From a virus, in the IMG/VR virus record IMGVR_UViG_3300037502_001148, positions 1-36,883 of that record: a stretch of 36,883 bases of DNA; one strand, given 5' to 3'. This document shows positions 1 to 36,883 of this stretch, piece by piece. A program made the position numbers and the translations under genes. Position 1 is the first letter of the stretch, and the number at the start of each line of letters is the position of its first letter. Under the pieces are notes generated by a model that made no database searches, was not told where the DNA came from, and was given only the letters and a program-made list of their open reading frames with translations.

Positions 1-72
1 CTATCCCCTTTTCATTGTCAGAAAAATCAGCATCAGCAGTACGGCAGCGAGTTCCGCGAGTGTCGGCATCAT
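1..72 (-). CDS. 23-aa single-pass membrane peptide (left variant)
   Basis: The reading frame runs ATG ATG CCG ... AAA AGG GGA TAG on the minus strand. It encodes a short polar start (MMPTLAE), a hydrophobic stretch (LAAVLLMLIFL) long enough for one membrane segment, and a basic end (TMKRG). Its ATG overlaps the nrdH stop as ATGA, so it is probably translationally coupled. The second copy at 36670-36741 differs at five positions, all synonymous (TAG/TAA, GGA/GGG, ACA/ACG, ATT/ATA, GCG/GCA), which suggests a selected protein. No family is recognised. A holin-like, signalling or membrane-anchoring role would be a guess. Confidence 0.65.
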   Translation of the reverse strand: MMPTLAELAAVLLMLIFLTMKRG

Positions 73-214: not shown

Positions 215-404
215 AGGTCACGCCCATGTTTTGCATGTGCAGTTTGGTAAAACGGCATTGCGCGCAGTTGTTTTTCGTGTAGATGATAGTGCCGCGACTG
301 TTCTTCTCTTTTTCGGATTTGATAGCGTCCAGTTCATCCATCAGTTCATAAGCCCTTCCCAATGCGCCTGTTGGATTTCCGTCTGCCCATGTTCTCGGTT
401 TCAT
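69..404 (-). CDS. nrdH: NrdH-like glutaredoxin
   Basis: This 111-aa protein ends in a thioredoxin-fold glutaredoxin domain. The redox motif is C47-A-Q-C50, the cis-proline is P88 in SMPIV, and the C-terminal part carries a GF-x-PDKL motif typical of NrdH. NrdH proteins pass electrons to class Ib ribonucleotide reductase, so the phage copy would support dNTP supply. About 37 N-terminal residues (W6, ALGRAYELMDELD) precede the fold and are unusual for NrdH, which is normally about 75 aa. GGAGG lies 7 nt before the ATG, which overlaps the upstream stop as ATGA. The right-hand variant ends one codon earlier (KLNGLA versus KLNWLAL). Confidence 0.85.
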   Translation of the reverse strand: MKPRTWADGNPTGALGRAYELMDELDAIKSEKEKNSRGTIIYTKNNCAQCRFTKLHMQNMGVTYEERNVDEDDAYMQEAIDTGYKSMPIVVLNGEVIASGFQPDKLNWLAL

Positions 405-697
405 TTCGCTTCCTCCATTTCCAATAATGTCAGCACCGCATATCCGGCAAGGTCAATCAGCGTATCTCGCAACGTTTCATCCTTGACCATCCGTTCCGCT
501 TCCGATTTCCCTGCCAGACTGATTAGGCGGTTCGTTTTGTCGCTAATTCGCGTGACTGCTGAGATGATGCCTAGTTTTTGGTACGTTTCTGAAAAACTGT
601 CGCCATAATCCGCGTTTTTTTCCTGGTACGTTTGATTCAATTGCTTACAAATTGCCAAGTGCGTTGCAGCTTTGTCGTTTATTATATTTTCCGTCAT
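401..697 (-). CDS. DUF1599 / nucleotide-modification-associated-type protein
   Basis: The 98-aa product begins MTENIINDKAATH and contains the pattern YQEKNADYGDSF ... DKTNRLISL ... DTLIDLAGYAVL. I recognise this as the DUF1599 (Nmad1) family, a helical domain common in phage nucleotide-metabolism neighbourhoods. Its biochemical role is not settled. The start is the ATG at 697, with GGGAG 8 nt upstream and a TGATG overlap with the preceding 37-aa gene. The same frame runs open far upstream into the Myb/SANT gene. I treat that as a fusion caused by a nearby single-base indel, so the 354-codon frame is not proposed as one protein. Its neighbour nrdH also belongs to nucleotide metabolism. Confidence 0.7.
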   Translation of the reverse strand: MTENIINDKAATHLAICKQLNQTYQEKNADYGDSFSETYQKLGIISAVTRISDKTNRLISLAGKSEAERMVKDETLRDTLIDLAGYAVLTLLEMEEAK

Positions 698-810
698 CAC
701 AACCACTCCCATGTCTTGATGTTCTCCGCTTTCGTGTACGCCATCGCTTCCTTCAGACTTGGAAACACGCCAATAATCTTGTTCCTTGTCGTATCTTTGA
801 CCACGATCAA
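697..810 (-). CDS. 37-aa phage protein, TTG start
   Basis: Reading from TTG at 810 gives a compact peptide: IVVKDTTRNKIIGVF, then SLKEAMAYTK, ending NIKTWEWL. This looks like two beta strands followed by a helix and a conserved-looking Trp pair. An AAAGGGG Shine-Dalgarno sits 8 nt before the TTG. The stop codon TGA overlaps the ATG of the DUF1599 gene (TGATG), so coupling is likely. The other open frame over the same bases gives low-complexity charged sequence, which argues that this frame is the coding one. No function can be assigned. Confidence 0.55.
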   Translation of the reverse strand: MIVVKDTTRNKIIGVFPSLKEAMAYTKAENIKTWEWL

Positions 811-1465
811 ATTCCCCACCCCTTTTTAGTAATATGACCCTTGCTTCCACAGCTGCCCGCGTTCGTTTGATTTCAATGCCGATTTTTTCCGCGCTCATCC
901 GATTGTAGTGCTGGACGATGTAGTCATCCTCTTCTTTTGTCCATGGCTTTCTTGGCCTTGCTGGTATGCCGTACCGTTCCCGCAATTTCGCTTTTCTCCG
1001 CGTGACCGCTTTTTCCGTCACGATTTTGCCAAAACGTTCGGCAAGTTTGGCGGTCAGTTCTTTTGTTGGCATGTCGATGTTCGTTTTGACAAATGCTTCT
1101 TCTGCTGATGACCACGCATCCGGCGGTAGGCGTTTCCTTGATTCGGCACGTTTTACCGCTTCTTGTTCGGCAGCAATCCGTTTCCGTTCACGTTCTTCAG
1201 CAAGTGCCACCTTCTTTATTTCCAGTTGCATGTGCTTCTTTTCCTTGGTTTGGCGCATCTTTTCTTCGATGGCTTCCAGTTGTTCGTCTTCCGTCCGGAT
1301 GTATTCACCTTCGCGCATCACGCGGATTGCTTCAGAGTGTTTGATGCGTTCGTTTTGCCGTCCGTCGATATTGCTCACGCGTTCATTTACCGCACGACTG
1401 CATTCTGCGTGACTGCCTGTTGCGTATAGCTTGCCTGTTTCGATGCCGACTGCTTTCCAGTTCAT
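807..1465 (-). CDS. Myb/SANT-like DNA-binding protein, 3' end probably frameshifted
   Basis: About 219 aa. The N-terminal 50 residues contain a GIETGKLYATGSHAECSRAV segment. A charged coiled coil follows (about 55-110). Two Trp-led SANT/Myb-like helical repeats come next: WSSAEEAFVKTNIDM ... (about 117-160) and PWTKEEDDYIVQHYNRMSAE ... (about 174-213). Such proteins occur in Gram-positive phage early regions and are presumed DNA-binding regulators. As given, the frame lacks a stop and runs into the DUF1599 gene. One extra base in the A5G4TG4 tract (about 814-827) would end it at a TGA (809-807) overlapping the next gene's TTG. The start has GGGAGGG 5 nt upstream of its ATG. Confidence 0.6.
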
Positions 1466-9556: not shown

Positions 9557-9803
9557 TTTTATCCCACCCTTTCACATTCACCTGTTTCAGTCGCTTCTGT
9601 AAGAACTCCATCCGGCCCGCTTCCTTCATGCTCAATCCGCTGAAATCCGGCATGCGCGTTACCTTGTTTGTGTAGCAATCAAAGACGAGTACCGGACGAC
9701 TTACACCGTCTATCAGCTTGTCAATGCGGATGGCCGTGTCAGTGATGAAGCGGTGTGATGTGCCTGTTTCCTGCAGCAGTTCGCTTACTCGTGCTGCGTT
9801 CAT
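9537..9803 (-). CDS. Hypothetical phage protein, 88 aa
   Basis: The N-terminal part is helical (MNAARVSELLQETGTSHRFI), the centre is beta-like (RPVLVFDCYTNKVTRMPDF), and the C-terminus is basic. No family is recognised. The ATG overlaps the stop of the 40-aa membrane protein as ATGA, with GGAGG 7 nt upstream, so the two are coupled. Confidence 0.6.
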   Translation of the reverse strand: MNAARVSELLQETGTSHRFITDTAIRIDKLIDGVSRPVLVFDCYTNKVTRMPDFSGLSMKEAGRMEFLQKRLKQVNVKGWDKNVRSND

Positions 9804-9922
9804 AGGCTGACCTCCACATATCCCACGATCCCGACGATTAGTAATGCGATGCTAACCACGATGACCGTGCCGATAAAGCTGACTAGCTTATCTTCAAATT
9901 CATTGGTAAAAACTTTCATCAT
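9800..9922 (-). CDS. Small membrane protein, 40 aa
   Basis: From ATG ATG at 9922 the peptide has a charged start (KVFTNEFEDKLVSF) and then one clear transmembrane helix (IGTVIVVSIALLIVGIVGY). GGAGG is 5-8 nt before the two ATGs. The stop overlaps the next ATG. It lies in the first early genes expressed after PL. Single-pass phage early proteins of this kind are sometimes superinfection-exclusion or host-takeover factors, but that is only a possibility here. Confidence 0.6.
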   Translation of the reverse strand: MMKVFTNEFEDKLVSFIGTVIVVSIALLIVGIVGYVEVSL

Positions 9923-14860: not shown

Positions 14861-17842
14861 TCAACGGTTGTTGTAGAACTTTATGTTGTTTATATGATTC
14901 AAGGTTAACCAGTTGACAAATACCTCAACACCTCTTTTTATTGATTCTCCGCTAAATTCTGCAGTTTCATTAAAAAAGACGGAGCCTATTTCAATAGTAG
15001 ATGCTTGTAAACCTCTTTTAGGGGCGTGTAGAGCCATCGAGCCAACTGGTGTGTCACTTACATATCCGTAGTAATCTTTCCCATCATTGGCTAGAGCTGG
15101 AATGACCTTTTTCCAATGGTTCGACAAACTTGAAACGAGAGACTCACCAATATTGTAGCTAAATAAAGTTCCGCCTGCGTTCCACATAAAATTATCAGTG
15201 TTGCTTCCAAAGTTATGGAAGTCACCAAAGTAGATGACATCTTCTTCAGTCTCAATTATGCTATTGATAGCTATCGCCTCTGGCTCTGTTAAAGGTGCTT
15301 CGCCACCATATGTGGTATGGTCAACTTCAAATTGAGTCCACTTAGTGGGGAACTGTCTGTTAATATCAATCCCGTTGCCATTTTTTCGTGTGTTTGCATT
15401 CCATCCTGACGGATTGGCGATAGGTACAATCACAAATTCTACACCCCATCTTAATGATTCTAAAATCTCGTCAGTTTTCCAATCCTCAATTATCATTTTC
15501 ATCGAGGTATAAAGTGTCCAAGCTGCGGCTTTTTCGTTTCCATGAGTACCGCCTATCAACACCATTTTTGGTTTTTTGAGCTTGACATTCTCATCTAACA
15601 TGGTAGTAGGAATCTTGAAATGATACTTGAACAAGTCATTACCTTGTGCGTCCGTTGCTATTTTCGTCTTGGTGTCATTACTACTCATCAACCCATCCCA
15701 CAATAAGTGCATATCGTTAGCACTTTTGGTGCTAATGTGGGAAGCATCTTCCATTTCAGGGGATTCGAATACTCGTCTTAGTCTTTCCACATAGAAATCT
15801 TTGTCTGACAAATCATTTTTATTGAGCTCCTCTTGCTTTAATTCAACGTTATCAATCTTGATATAATAAGGTTCATAAGGTAATAATTCTGAGGACTCAT
15901 TCAACTGTGTTGTGTCTGCTGTTCCTATATTTATGGTCAGCCTGACAAACTGCGCATTTGATGGTACAGTTATGGTTTTATTTGTCGATGTACTGATTGC
16001 GTTTTTATCTTCATCGTACCAAAAAATTCTAACAGCATTATGCGTGTAGGTTTTGTTTGGCAAGACTGATATAAATTCTGACACATCATAACCATTCAGC
16101 ACCGGTTTACCATAGTTTTCTCCGAGTATCGGATTCAAAGACCTTCCCTTTAATACACTTTTTGCATTGAATCGGTTGGATGACAGCTCGACAACATCGT
16201 CTTTATTGAGTTCATCCTGTTTTATTTCAGCGTTGTCAATTTTGATGTAATAAGGTTCATACGGTAGTAATGTTGGTGATTCATTCAACTGTGTTGTGTC
16301 TGCTGTTCCTGTGAGTATAACCAACCTAACAAAAGTTGCGTTCGATGGTATGGTTTCGGTTTTATTTGTCGATGTACTTATCCCTTTTTTATCTTCATCG
16401 TACCAGAAAATTCTGTACCCATTATGTGTGTAGGTCTTATTCGGTAATACGGATATAAACTCTGACACATCATAACCGCCATTCGGAATCGCTTTACCAT
16501 AACCCTCCGTACCATACCCAGCAGAGTCCAAAGCGTGACCAGATAGTATGGTTTGAGCATTAAAACGGTTAGATGACCTATCAACAAAGTTGGTATTTGA
16601 TATATCTACGGCTTTTTCTCCAATATCTCTATTCGAGATTGACTTTGGTCTTAGAGCAACTGATTCTGACAAATAAGGCGTGAAGTAACTTTCATAAGGT
16701 GCTAAAGCACTCCCTACGTTGAGTTGAGCATTATTTAGTTGCTGATTTTGTATAACTAATACAATTAGTTGAGCATTAGATGGCGTGGTTCTAACCATAT
16801 GGTTTAATTCATCTGCCGATGCTCCAGTTCTACTGATGAACACTCGGTTACCCGTAAAGAAACTGATGTAGTTAACCTTTGACGTTGAATAAATAGTATT
16901 TGGCGTTACAGGCAAATAGTCAGAAATACTATAACTAGCATTAGGCGTTTTGACACCAGTGGTGTCAATCGCGTATCCCGCTTCTATTTTGTTCTTGTCG
17001 AATAAATTTGTACTTTTGACCAAAAAAGCTGCGTTTTCAGCAGTGACATTATCTCTGCCTATCACAGCGTTGATTTGACCGGGGGTTAAACCAAGTAACG
17101 TTGACCTTGTTGTCTCGTTAAAATTATCAAAATCAAGTAAGTAACTATCGGACGATTTATCTAAATCCTGCTTTTTAACCCCTCCCTTTTTTATAGTTTC
17201 TGCCAACTGTCGCTCAGTTGAAAGTAAGCGACTGTTGTTTATTTCCTCAAAATCTTCCAACTTCTCGGCAAGGTTCGCCGCGACTATTCCGGTTTCCAGA
17301 GCCACGTCAAACTCGCCCAGACTTGCATTTGCCGTATTAATTGCCGTTTGCAGCTCACCTTTTAAGGCATCCACCTCGTCGGATGAAGTGTCGATAAACG
17401 TCCGGGCCTCTCTGGTCAATGTCGTCCAATCTTGAATCATGACCTCGACAGCTACTTTGTTTTCAAGTCCACTAACAACCTCAAAATCATACAGTTGAGA
17501 CGTTAATTTTTCCGGCGGGTTAATCTCATCATCCCAGACCAAAACAAGCTGCGCTCTTGCTATACCGCTATGCTTGCCTTCGTTTCCTTTCATCGTATAG
17601 TTTACTATTGTCCCGGTAATCTCCACGCCATCAGCCGGTCCGTTTTGGAAAAACGAACCGTCACGCATATATAAATACACGTTCGGTATCACGCCGACAA
17701 GATCAGCTGCTTCCAGGTCGGTGATATTAAAATCGAATGTTACTGTGTTTTCATCCCCTGTGTAACATCTTGGAGTTTCCATCTGCCATACTGTTTTTGT
17801 GGACTTCATCGCTACATCATATTTCAGTAATTTATCTGCCAT
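14861..17842 (-). CDS. Baseplate/tail protein: BppU-like N-terminus, three repeats, M14 carboxypeptidase-like C-terminus
   Basis: The 993-aa protein starts with a BppU-type domain (1-150: VTFDFNITDLEAADLVGVIP). A coiled coil (150-225) follows, then three related beta-rich repeats (about 277-392, 423-537, 553-666); the last two are near-identical over YDVSEFISVLPNKTYTHN. The C-terminal 300 residues resemble M14 zinc carboxypeptidases: H767-x2-E770 (GTHGNEKA), N810-P-S-G, NGIDINRQFP (N828, R829), H876 (GDFHNFG) and E951 (TIEIG). It probably forms the host-binding fibre or baseplate and digests a wall or surface substrate during adsorption. AAAGGAG precedes the ATG. Confidence 0.8.
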   Translation of the reverse strand: MADKLLKYDVAMKSTKTVWQMETPRCYTGDENTVTFDFNITDLEAADLVGVIPNVYLYMRDGSFFQNGPADGVEITGTIVNYTMKGNEGKHSGIARAQLVLVWDDEINPPEKLTSQLYDFEVVSGLENKVAVEVMIQDWTTLTREARTFIDTSSDEVDALKGELQTAINTANASLGEFDVALETGIVAANLAEKLEDFEEINNSRLLSTERQLAETIKKGGVKKQDLDKSSDSYLLDFDNFNETTRSTLLGLTPGQINAVIGRDNVTAENAAFLVKSTNLFDKNKIEAGYAIDTTGVKTPNASYSISDYLPVTPNTIYSTSKVNYISFFTGNRVFISRTGASADELNHMVRTTPSNAQLIVLVIQNQQLNNAQLNVGSALAPYESYFTPYLSESVALRPKSISNRDIGEKAVDISNTNFVDRSSNRFNAQTILSGHALDSAGYGTEGYGKAIPNGGYDVSEFISVLPNKTYTHNGYRIFWYDEDKKGISTSTNKTETIPSNATFVRLVILTGTADTTQLNESPTLLPYEPYYIKIDNAEIKQDELNKDDVVELSSNRFNAKSVLKGRSLNPILGENYGKPVLNGYDVSEFISVLPNKTYTHNAVRIFWYDEDKNAISTSTNKTITVPSNAQFVRLTINIGTADTTQLNESSELLPYEPYYIKIDNVELKQEELNKNDLSDKDFYVERLRRVFESPEMEDASHISTKSANDMHLLWDGLMSSNDTKTKIATDAQGNDLFKYHFKIPTTMLDENVKLKKPKMVLIGGTHGNEKAAAWTLYTSMKMIIEDWKTDEILESLRWGVEFVIVPIANPSGWNANTRKNGNGIDINRQFPTKWTQFEVDHTTYGGEAPLTEPEAIAINSIIETEEDVIYFGDFHNFGSNTDNFMWNAGGTLFSYNIGESLVSSLSNHWKKVIPALANDGKDYYGYVSDTPVGSMALHAPKRGLQASTIEIGSVFFNETAEFSGESIKRGVEVFVNWLTLNHINNIKFYNNR

Positions 17843-35347: not shown

Positions 35348-35760
35348 ATCGGCAATCCCAATTCATCCGCCATCATCACGAAAAACTTGTCTCGGAACCG
35401 TCTACATTGTCGCTCGCTCAATCCCGAATCCATCGCAATGCCTTCCCACGTTCGTAACCGCGGCTTCTGAAAGTAGAACATCTGCACCACTCCTACCGTT
35501 ATCGGGTCTGCCTCTTCAATCAGTTTATCAATCGCCCGCTTGTATCGTATCAACATTTGCAGGCGCTTATCTTCGGTTATTGTAATCGCCATGCGTTCGG
35601 TCGGCTTGGAGATAAAACTACTCCGTCCGCCACCTATGTTTTGATCAATCGCTAGTTCATCCGGAAAAATCAGTTCTTCTTCCCGTTGTTTGATATAATT
35701 GTCCATCTCCGGATAATCTCGTAATAGCTGCTCGATGTATTTAAACGTTCCCTGCTTCAC
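35344..35760 (-). CDS. RinA/ArpU-like late transcription regulator
   Basis: GTG 35760 is chosen because GGAAAGG is 8 nt upstream, formed by the end of the previous gene; a TTG 33 nt further up lacks a site. The 138-aa product has a helical N-terminal part (GTFKYIEQLLRDYPEMDNYI). Its C-terminal part resembles sigma region 4: RYKRAIDKLIEEADPITVGV, FQKPRLRTWEGIAMDSGLSE and RQCRRFRDKFFVMMADELGL. This fits the RinA/ArpU group that activates packaging and structural genes. The late promoter lies about 270 bp downstream. Confidence 0.8.
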   Translation of the reverse strand: MKQGTFKYIEQLLRDYPEMDNYIKQREEELIFPDELAIDQNIGGGRSSFISKPTERMAITITEDKRLQMLIRYKRAIDKLIEEADPITVGVVQMFYFQKPRLRTWEGIAMDSGLSERQCRRFRDKFFVMMADELGLPI

Positions 35761-35948
35761 CCAATCACCCTTTCCAGTTCGTTCCGATCGCAATAACCCA
35801 GATACTCATAATCAAACTTCTCCAAGTCCGCATCCTCCAACTCGTTCGTATAGCCCACGTACCAGTTGTCTTTCACGTTGTGGATAAACCGCCAACCTGT
35901 GGCGTAAATCAGCCGTACATGTTTCCTTGACCGATAGATGTGATACAT
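35757..35948 (-). CDS. Hypothetical phage protein, 63 aa
   Basis: The product is aromatic and charged (MYHIYRSRKHVRLIYATGWR, then FIHNVKDNWYVGYTNELEDA), with a short acidic to helical end. AGGAG is 7 nt before the ATG. It overlaps the regulator's GTG by 4 nt. No family is recognised. Confidence 0.65.
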   Translation of the reverse strand: MYHIYRSRKHVRLIYATGWRFIHNVKDNWYVGYTNELEDADLEKFDYEYLGYCDRNELERVIG

Positions 35949-35952
35949 GCAA

Positions 35953-36102
35953 TCACTCCTTTTCTTTGAGCCATGCTTCCAGTTCTTTTTTTGTCATTTG
36001 TATATGCTCCGGTTCTTCGGCATAGTACATATCGCTTAGTCTGTCCAGTATTGCGAACAGTACAACGATGACGAAGCATAGCAGGATATTTGTCACTAGC
36101 AT
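35953..36102 (-). CDS. 49-aa membrane protein
   Basis: The ATG at 36102 has the strong site AAGGAGG 7 nt upstream. The N-terminal 18 residues form a transmembrane helix (LVTNILLCFVIVVLFAIL). A polar cytoplasmic part with a C-terminal helix follows (MTKKELEAWLKEKE). It overlaps the YopX-like gene by 7 nt. It resembles the other short membrane proteins in this phage in design only. The role is unknown. Confidence 0.65.
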   Translation of the reverse strand: MLVTNILLCFVIVVLFAILDRLSDMYYAEEPEHIQMTKKELEAWLKEKE

Positions 36103-36488
36103 GTTGGTTCCTCCTTAAGTAGTTCGGGATTTTCGTATCGGTTTCCGATAACAGTTATGTCTTCTCCCCAAAAGCCGTTGATATCAAAACCAAAGCATCT
36201 TCCGCCGTAGTCGTAGTCGCAATTATCATCATATTCCATAACAGCAACGGAAGACTTTTCTAATCCATCATCGAAATACTTATGCTCAAGTATGTCTCCC
36301 TCGAAAACGTGAGTCCCGTTAATGTCTTTTAATCCGATGTATTGTAGCAATTCGCAGTCTTTCCCTAGCCATCCGGTGTGCATGCAACCATCCGAAACAC
36401 GCGTACCGTCGTTTAAAAATTCGATGGTATCGACGTTTGTCATTAACTTTGATTCGTGCCAATATGCTTTATATTTAATCTCTCTCAT
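36096..36488 (-). CDS. YopX-like protein
   Basis: The start at 36488 (MREIKYKAYWHESKLM) follows GGAGG by 7 nt. The 130-aa product shows the YopX layout: LLQYIGLKDINGTHVFEGDI, then a beta core with VAVMEYDDNCDYDYGG and the end DITVIGNRYENPELL. YopX proteins are common in Gram-positive prophages, and their function is not defined. The ATG overlaps the preceding stop (ATGA). Confidence 0.88.
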   Translation of the reverse strand: MREIKYKAYWHESKLMTNVDTIEFLNDGTRVSDGCMHTGWLGKDCELLQYIGLKDINGTHVFEGDILEHKYFDDGLEKSSVAVMEYDDNCDYDYGGRCFGFDINGFWGEDITVIGNRYENPELLKEEPTC

Positions 36489-36667
36489 CCCTCTACCTCC
36501 CATTTCACCGTGTGATAATCCGGGTCCGTCCGATGCTCAAGCACCCCATCAGTCAGCCGGAACATTTCGAACACATCGCCCTGCTTTGCAACAAATACGC
36601 CATCCCTCACCATTTCCACATTCCCATAAATTGCGCTTAGTTTTGCGATTGCTTGTTCGTTCGTCAT
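36485..36667 (-). CDS. Hypothetical phage protein, 60 aa
   Basis: A small beta-rich protein (EQAIAKLSAIYGNVEMVRDG, then VFVAKQGDVFEMFRLTDGVL, ending YHTVKWEVEG). GGGGG is 5 nt before the ATG, formed by the last codons of the 23-aa peptide gene, so the two are coupled. No family is recognised. Confidence 0.65.
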   Translation of the reverse strand: MTNEQAIAKLSAIYGNVEMVRDGVFVAKQGDVFEMFRLTDGVLEHRTDPDYHTVKWEVEG

Positions 36668-36669
36668 AA

Positions 36670-36741
36670 TTACCCCCTTTTCATCGTCAGAAATATCAGC
36701 ATCAGCAGTACGGCAGCGAGTTCTGCGAGTGTCGGCATCAT
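36670..36741 (-). CDS. 23-aa single-pass membrane peptide (right variant)
   Basis: This copy encodes exactly the same 23 residues as 1-72 (hydrophobic core LAAVLLMLIFL, basic end), although five bases differ. Here the stop is TAA, 2 nt before the next gene's ATG, and the start overlaps the nrdH stop as TGATG. The ATG ATG start has no strong purine site of its own, so it relies on coupling to nrdH. Confidence 0.65.
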   Translation of the reverse strand: MMPTLAELAAVLLMLIFLTMKRG

Positions 36742-36883
36742 CACGCTAACCCGTTCAGCTTATCCGGCTGAAATCCCGATGCAATGACTTCCCCATTCAG
36801 CACCACGATCGGCATTGATTTATATCCGGTATCGATTGCTTCTTGCATATAGGCATCATCCTCGTCCACATTCCGCTCCTCAT
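36741..36883 (-). CDS. nrdH: NrdH-like glutaredoxin, C-terminal fragment cut by the window edge
   Basis: The window ends inside this gene, so only the last 46 codons are present. They match the left copy up to KLN, then read GLA and stop, whereas the left copy reads WLAL. The shorter end comes from TGA at 36743 in place of TTA. It is most simply the same gene reached again on a circular molecule, in a strain variant. Confidence 0.75.
   Translation of the reverse strand, partial: EERNVDEDDAYMQEAIDTGYKSMPIVVLNGEVIASGFQPDKLNGLA

What the first reader, a model, noticed from the sequence alone, without database searches (positions are those of the whole stretch)
36670..36741. A 23-codon membrane peptide conserved through only synonymous change
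The two variants (1-72 and 36670-36741) differ at five of 72 bases and all five are silent, including a TAG/TAA stop swap. The three differences just upstream in nrdH include one missense and one that creates a stop. This is small but direct evidence of selection on a gene that standard annotation would skip. It is coupled at both ends (ATGA/TGATG and a shared ribosome-binding site).
Basis: partly seen in the sequence, partly recalled or inferred. Interest (0 to 1): 0.68.

Follow-up and report, generated by a model that had tools for sequence, protein, structure and literature searches.

The report
Tiny selected phage membrane protein gene
A 23-amino-acid membrane peptide gene that annotation would normally miss is real: relatives of 23-30 amino acids lie in at least six other phage or prophage genomes linked to the bacterium Trichococcus and its family, keeping their protein sequence while the DNA and the neighbouring genes change, but what the peptide does is unknown.

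Summary
The two 72-base copies differ at five bases, all silent (chance 0.001-0.003), and the three nearby nrdH differences are one silent, one missense and one new stop. The copies are not two genes in one phage. The window is a whole virus record whose ends overlap by about 213 bp, with an inner run of exactly 127 identical bases, so the left copy is best read as a co-existing strain haplotype at an assembly end. I found six homologues of 23-30 aa: two in other viral contigs, one in a Trichococcus collinsii prophage contig, and three in prophages of other genomes of that GTDB family. Pooled, 17 of 20 sense-codon changes among close relatives are silent (P about 1e-7). Neighbours on one or both sides are often unrelated, so conservation belongs to this ORF. 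In six of the seven distinct peptides the last codons carry the Shine-Dalgarno site of whatever gene follows. It is a single predicted membrane helix in the early operon, between replication genes and terminase. nrdH linkage is incidental. Function is inferred only. Novelty: a new family of a known kind (overlooked phage small membrane proteins).

The parts
36670..36741 (-). 23-aa single-helix membrane peptide gene (right-end haplotype, stop TAA)
   Evidence: homologues
1..72 (-). the same gene, left-end haplotype (stop TAG), in the overlapping end of the same record
36673..36681 (-). last sense codons AAA AGG GGG, which double as the Shine-Dalgarno site of the next gene
   Evidence: -12.3 kcal/mol
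36485..36667 (-). 60-aa soluble alpha/beta protein, the next gene; homologues downstream of the peptide in L003 and L004 but without it in L007
69..404 (-). nrdH-like glutaredoxin; its stop overlaps the peptide start (ATGA)
36741..36743 (-). earlier nrdH stop (TGA, TGATG overlap) in the right-end haplotype
36096..36503 (-). YopX-family gene downstream in the same operon
401..1465 (-). DNA-binding regulator upstream of nrdH; relatives lie upstream of the peptide in L003, L004 and L015

Best explanation
It is a real protein-coding gene for a 23-aa single-pass membrane peptide made from the early operon of a temperate siphophage, probably of Trichococcus or a close relative. Shown from sequence: the ORF is under purifying selection, is homologous to 23-30-aa ORFs in other phages of this group, and keeps its identity when its neighbours are replaced. 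Inferred: ribosomes finishing the upstream gene restart at the overlapping ATG (in the three L043-type members a GGGG-containing stretch just upstream of the ATG may serve); the peptide inserts as one helix with a short N-terminus outside and a K/R-rich C-terminus in the cytoplasm; and its conserved face (E, A, A, L, F spaced 3-4 residues) packs against a host or phage membrane protein and alters its activity early in infection. Candidate roles are host takeover, superinfection exclusion or protection from a membrane defence. The role step is a guess (about 0.35-0.4). The last codons also supply the Shine-Dalgarno for the next gene.
For: All five differences between the window copies are silent. 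L004 carries 22/23 identical residues with pS 0.40 and pN 0.02, while the adjacent 60-aa gene has similar pS 0.44 but pN 0.23. The L004 upstream flank is unrelated (23/60). A profile built without it found a 30-aa homologue in a T. collinsii prophage contig at E 4e-5, again ATGA-coupled. The updated profile gave three weak hits (E 0.007-0.22) that are complete 24-aa ORFs, mutually 7 of 9 silent, with unrelated downstream flanks in all three (13-21/60) and an unrelated upstream flank in one. Pairwise similarity beats shuffles that keep hydrophobic positions (P 0.003 or less for all pairs). Pooled 17/20 silent, P about 1e-7. All members: hydrophobic core, N-flank charge 0 to -2, C-flank +2. AlphaFold gives one helix, residues 7-29 of the 30-aa member. 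Context is between replication genes and terminase.
Against: No expression, translation or membrane data. No functional homologue in Pfam, PHROGs, phage or plasmid records. The distribution is narrow: seven distinct loci in all, none elsewhere in about 395 sampled Lactobacillales and 399 sampled Bacilli genomes. The specific role is not tested by any result here. Conservation of the final K-R-G or D-R-R codons is confounded by the Shine-Dalgarno they encode. The silent-change tests treat events as independent.
Confidence: 0.75

Rival explanations
1. The ORF is only a translational coupling or leader element: its translation opens or supplies the Shine-Dalgarno of the next gene and the peptide itself does nothing.
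For: In six of the seven distinct peptides the last codons contain the Shine-Dalgarno of the next gene (AAAAGGGG, GGGAGG, AGGAGG); in L015 it lies just after the stop.
Against: That role needs only the last codons, yet the helix core (E, A, A, L, F) is conserved across diverged members and core changes are mostly silent.
Confidence: 0.12
2. It is a type I-toxin-like hydrophobic peptide that damages the membrane.
For: Size, a single hydrophobic helix and a basic C-terminus resemble small hydrophobic toxins (resemblance from own knowledge).
Against: No separately transcribed antisense regulator was found (no Rfam match in the window); it sits inside a polycistronic early operon, usually stop/start coupled.
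Confidence: 0.12
3. It is a lysis-related (holin or pinholin-like) peptide.
For: Small phage membrane protein.
Against: It lies in the early region between replication genes and terminase, not in the late region after the tail genes; one helix only.
Confidence: 0.04
4. Chance: a random ORF with lucky silent differences between two strain haplotypes.
Against: Independent homologues with the same bias, ORF boundaries and context.
Confidence: 0.02

Closest known systems
Conserved unannotated small genes of phages and microbiomes (Fremin et al. 2022 and Sberro et al. 2019, as cited in PMC11364881 and PMC11323111; global smORF catalogue PMC11364881)
   Same: Very short ORF, evolutionary coding signature, membrane-type product, missed by size cut-offs
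   Different: Trichococcus-phage family found here by a small profile; not checked against those catalogues, which were not available
Small phage proteins that modulate host or phage decisions (reviewed in PMC11323111: Qtip, AimX, MOR, Gp7)
   Same: Small phage proteins with a strong effect are an established kind
   Different: Those named are larger (51-79 aa where stated); no sequence relation tested or known
Type I toxin-antitoxin hydrophobic peptides (own knowledge)
   Same: Single hydrophobic helix with basic C-terminus
   Different: Operonic, usually stop/start-coupled, no antisense element found

Membership tests
Conserved unannotated phage small genes | ORF under 50 codons with coding-type substitution pattern in several genomes | tested here: met
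   17/20 changes silent across two groups of relatives
Conserved unannotated phage small genes | No match to existing curated families | tested here: met
   no Pfam or PHROG match even at E 10
Conserved unannotated phage small genes | Direct evidence of translation | not testable with these tools
   needs ribosome profiling or a tag
Single-pass small membrane proteins | One hydrophobic helix with a charge bias | tested here: met
   15-residue core mean KD 2.2-3.1, C-flank +2 in all members, single helix model (predictions only)
Type I toxin-antitoxin | Antisense or small RNA regulator beside the toxin | tested here: inconclusive
   no Rfam match in the window; antisense transcription itself not testable
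Holin/pinholin | Located in a lysis cassette next to an endolysin | tested here: not met
   early region, between replication genes and terminase
Translational coupling element only | Conservation limited to the Shine-Dalgarno and stop | tested here: not met
   helix core conserved too

The most novel reading that the evidence does not exclude
The peptide gene is a self-contained exchangeable cassette: 23-30 codons whose 3' end carries a Shine-Dalgarno for any gene that follows, so it can be inserted between different early genes without harming expression while delivering a selected membrane helix that acts on a host target. Supported by swapped neighbours on one or both sides and by homology ending at the ORF; the function and the mechanism of exchange are not shown.
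Probability: 0.2. Interest if true: 0.55.

Novelty: new member of a known kind. Interest (0 to 1): 0.38.

Why it matters
It shows that a gene of only 23 codons can be recognised with good statistics from strain variation at an assembly end plus a handful of distant homologues, and that early operons of temperate phages hide selected membrane peptides below annotation limits. The family motif gives a way to find more and a small, easily tested candidate for membrane-level host manipulation.

Tried and rejected
A DNA search of phage records with the locus and a protein search with the 60-aa gene found nothing. Peptide searches of phage and plasmid records found nothing but one E=9 chance hit. 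nrdH as anchor: 68 of 76 family genomes carry nrdH-like genes, but in the loci examined none is followed by this peptide, so nrdH linkage was rejected as defining. Weak hits G004:C11, L047, L048 and L054 were set aside because the ORF or context does not fit; hits inside long frames (L044, L049, L056, L057, L064, L065) were not followed. Fold search of the 60-aa neighbour gave no significant match in BFVD or PDB, so it gives no functional clue. No Rfam element in the window. In one search the nrdH window/L003 dN/dS used a wrong offset and is discarded.

Full report
What was claimed and whether it is there. The minus-strand ORFs at 36741..36670 and 72..1 both encode MMPTLAELAAVLLMLIFLTMKRG. They differ at five bases, all third positions and all silent including TAG/TAA. 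The three differences next to them in nrdH are one silent, one W/G and one new stop. With 25-30% of random changes silent in this ORF, five of five has probability 0.001-0.0026.

What the two copies are. The window is a complete virus record of 36,883 bases, and the only long repeat besides an internal one is between its two ends, 213 nt at 97%. The inner 127 bases are identical and all eight differences lie in the outer 87. A run of exactly 127 identical bases is what a de Bruijn assembler with k=127 leaves at the ends of a circular or terminally redundant molecule (own knowledge). The left 87 bases are therefore best read as the haplotype of a co-existing strain. This makes the comparison one between strains, which is what a selection test needs; it is not a gene duplication.

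Homologues. The nrdH protein found a viral contig (L003) with a 71% identical nrdH followed by a 28-aa ORF, MTGMTLSEFAAGLVLFVFLVDAIKGGKQ, overlapping the stop of nrdH and the start of a homologue of the 60-aa gene. The upstream regulator found L004, where MMPTLAEIAAVLLMLIFLTMKRG lies after a YopX-family gene, not after nrdH, and is again followed by a 60-aa homologue. A three-sequence profile found a 30-aa ORF, MMEDLPMTWMMLSEVAAGLLLLIFMTFKNK, at E 4e-5 in the Trichococcus collinsii genome, on a 24.7-kb contig with phage head and tail genes and an SSB homologue. The updated profile gave weak hits in three further genomes of the same GTDB family, each a complete 24-aa ORF, MIISE[VI][AS]AAVLLCIFIISAIKDRR, in prophage early regions with replication genes before and SSB and, in L067, terminase genes after (gene names there read from the sequences by eye). 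With these added the profile still finds only those genomes among 76 family and about 395 order genomes, apart from marginal fragments. The three genomes beside T. collinsii are unnamed here; that they are Trichococcus is likely but not shown.

Selection and homology tests. Window against L004: 7 of 8 base differences are silent, pS 0.40 and pN 0.02; the adjacent 60-aa gene has similar silent divergence (0.44) but pN 0.23. The 60 bases upstream of the peptide are unrelated between the two (23/60 identical), so homology begins at the ORF. In the three 24-aa members, 7 of 9 sense changes are silent and both others conservative; downstream flanks are unrelated in all pairs (13-21 of 60) and upstream flanks in two of three pairs (24-26 of 60; the third pair is 57 of 60). 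Pooled, 17 of 20 sense-codon events are silent, P about 1e-7. Pairwise alignments between the diverged members beat shuffles that keep the hydrophobic positions in place (P 0.003 or less for each pair).

Anatomy and likely mechanism. All members have a hydrophobic core, an N-flank of charge 0 to -2 and a C-flank of +2, and the model is one helix; topology N-out/C-in is inferred. In the window, L003, L004 and L015 the start overlaps the upstream stop (ATGA or TGATG), which suggests re-initiation, with little Shine-Dalgarno of their own except in L004. The 24-aa members have a GGGG-containing stretch (TAGGGGTGCG) just upstream of the ATG. In six of the seven distinct peptides the last codons hold the Shine-Dalgarno of the next gene; in L015 it follows the stop. 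The gene sits in the early operon between replication genes and terminase. The best mechanism is an early, low-cost membrane helix that binds a membrane partner; the partner and effect are unknown and the role is an inference.

Relation to known things. Thousands of conserved small phage genes have been predicted (Fremin et al. 2022, cited in PMC11364881 and PMC11323111), so the kind is known; this family has no Pfam or PHROG match. It is not a lysis-cassette protein by position, and the cis-only leader idea fails because the helix core is conserved. A toxin role cannot be excluded.

Verdict. Interest is moderate: a well-supported new small protein family of a known kind with unknown function.

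Noticed in passing
1-214 and 36670-36883: The record's ends overlap by 213 bp (127 bp identical), so the real unit is about 36.67 kb and probably circularly permuted or circularised.
   Followed up: partly
14861-17842: Tail protein with a BppU N-terminal domain and an M14 zinc carboxypeptidase domain, containing a 282-nt internal duplication (15812-16093 and 16196-16477, 80% identical).
   Followed up: no
35953-36102 (-): Another short ORF of 49 aa with a strong membrane helix in the gap before the YopX gene.
   Followed up: no
9800-9922 (-): A 40-aa membrane-helix ORF.
   Followed up: no
35757-35948: 63-aa ORF that is 97% identical to one in L004 although neighbouring genes are only about 65% identical or unrelated: recent exchange or strong constraint.
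   Followed up: no
36741-36756 and 69-87: nrdH ends ...LNGLA* in one haplotype and ...LNWLAL* in the other, so the stop/start junction differs (TGATG against ATGA) while the peptide is unchanged.
   Followed up: partly
36485-36667; L015:328-573; L066:13514-13765: The 60-aa gene may belong to a wider family of small proteins with an MT-x-x-(E/Q)A-I start; weak profile similarity to an 81-aa T. collinsii phage protein.
   Followed up: partly
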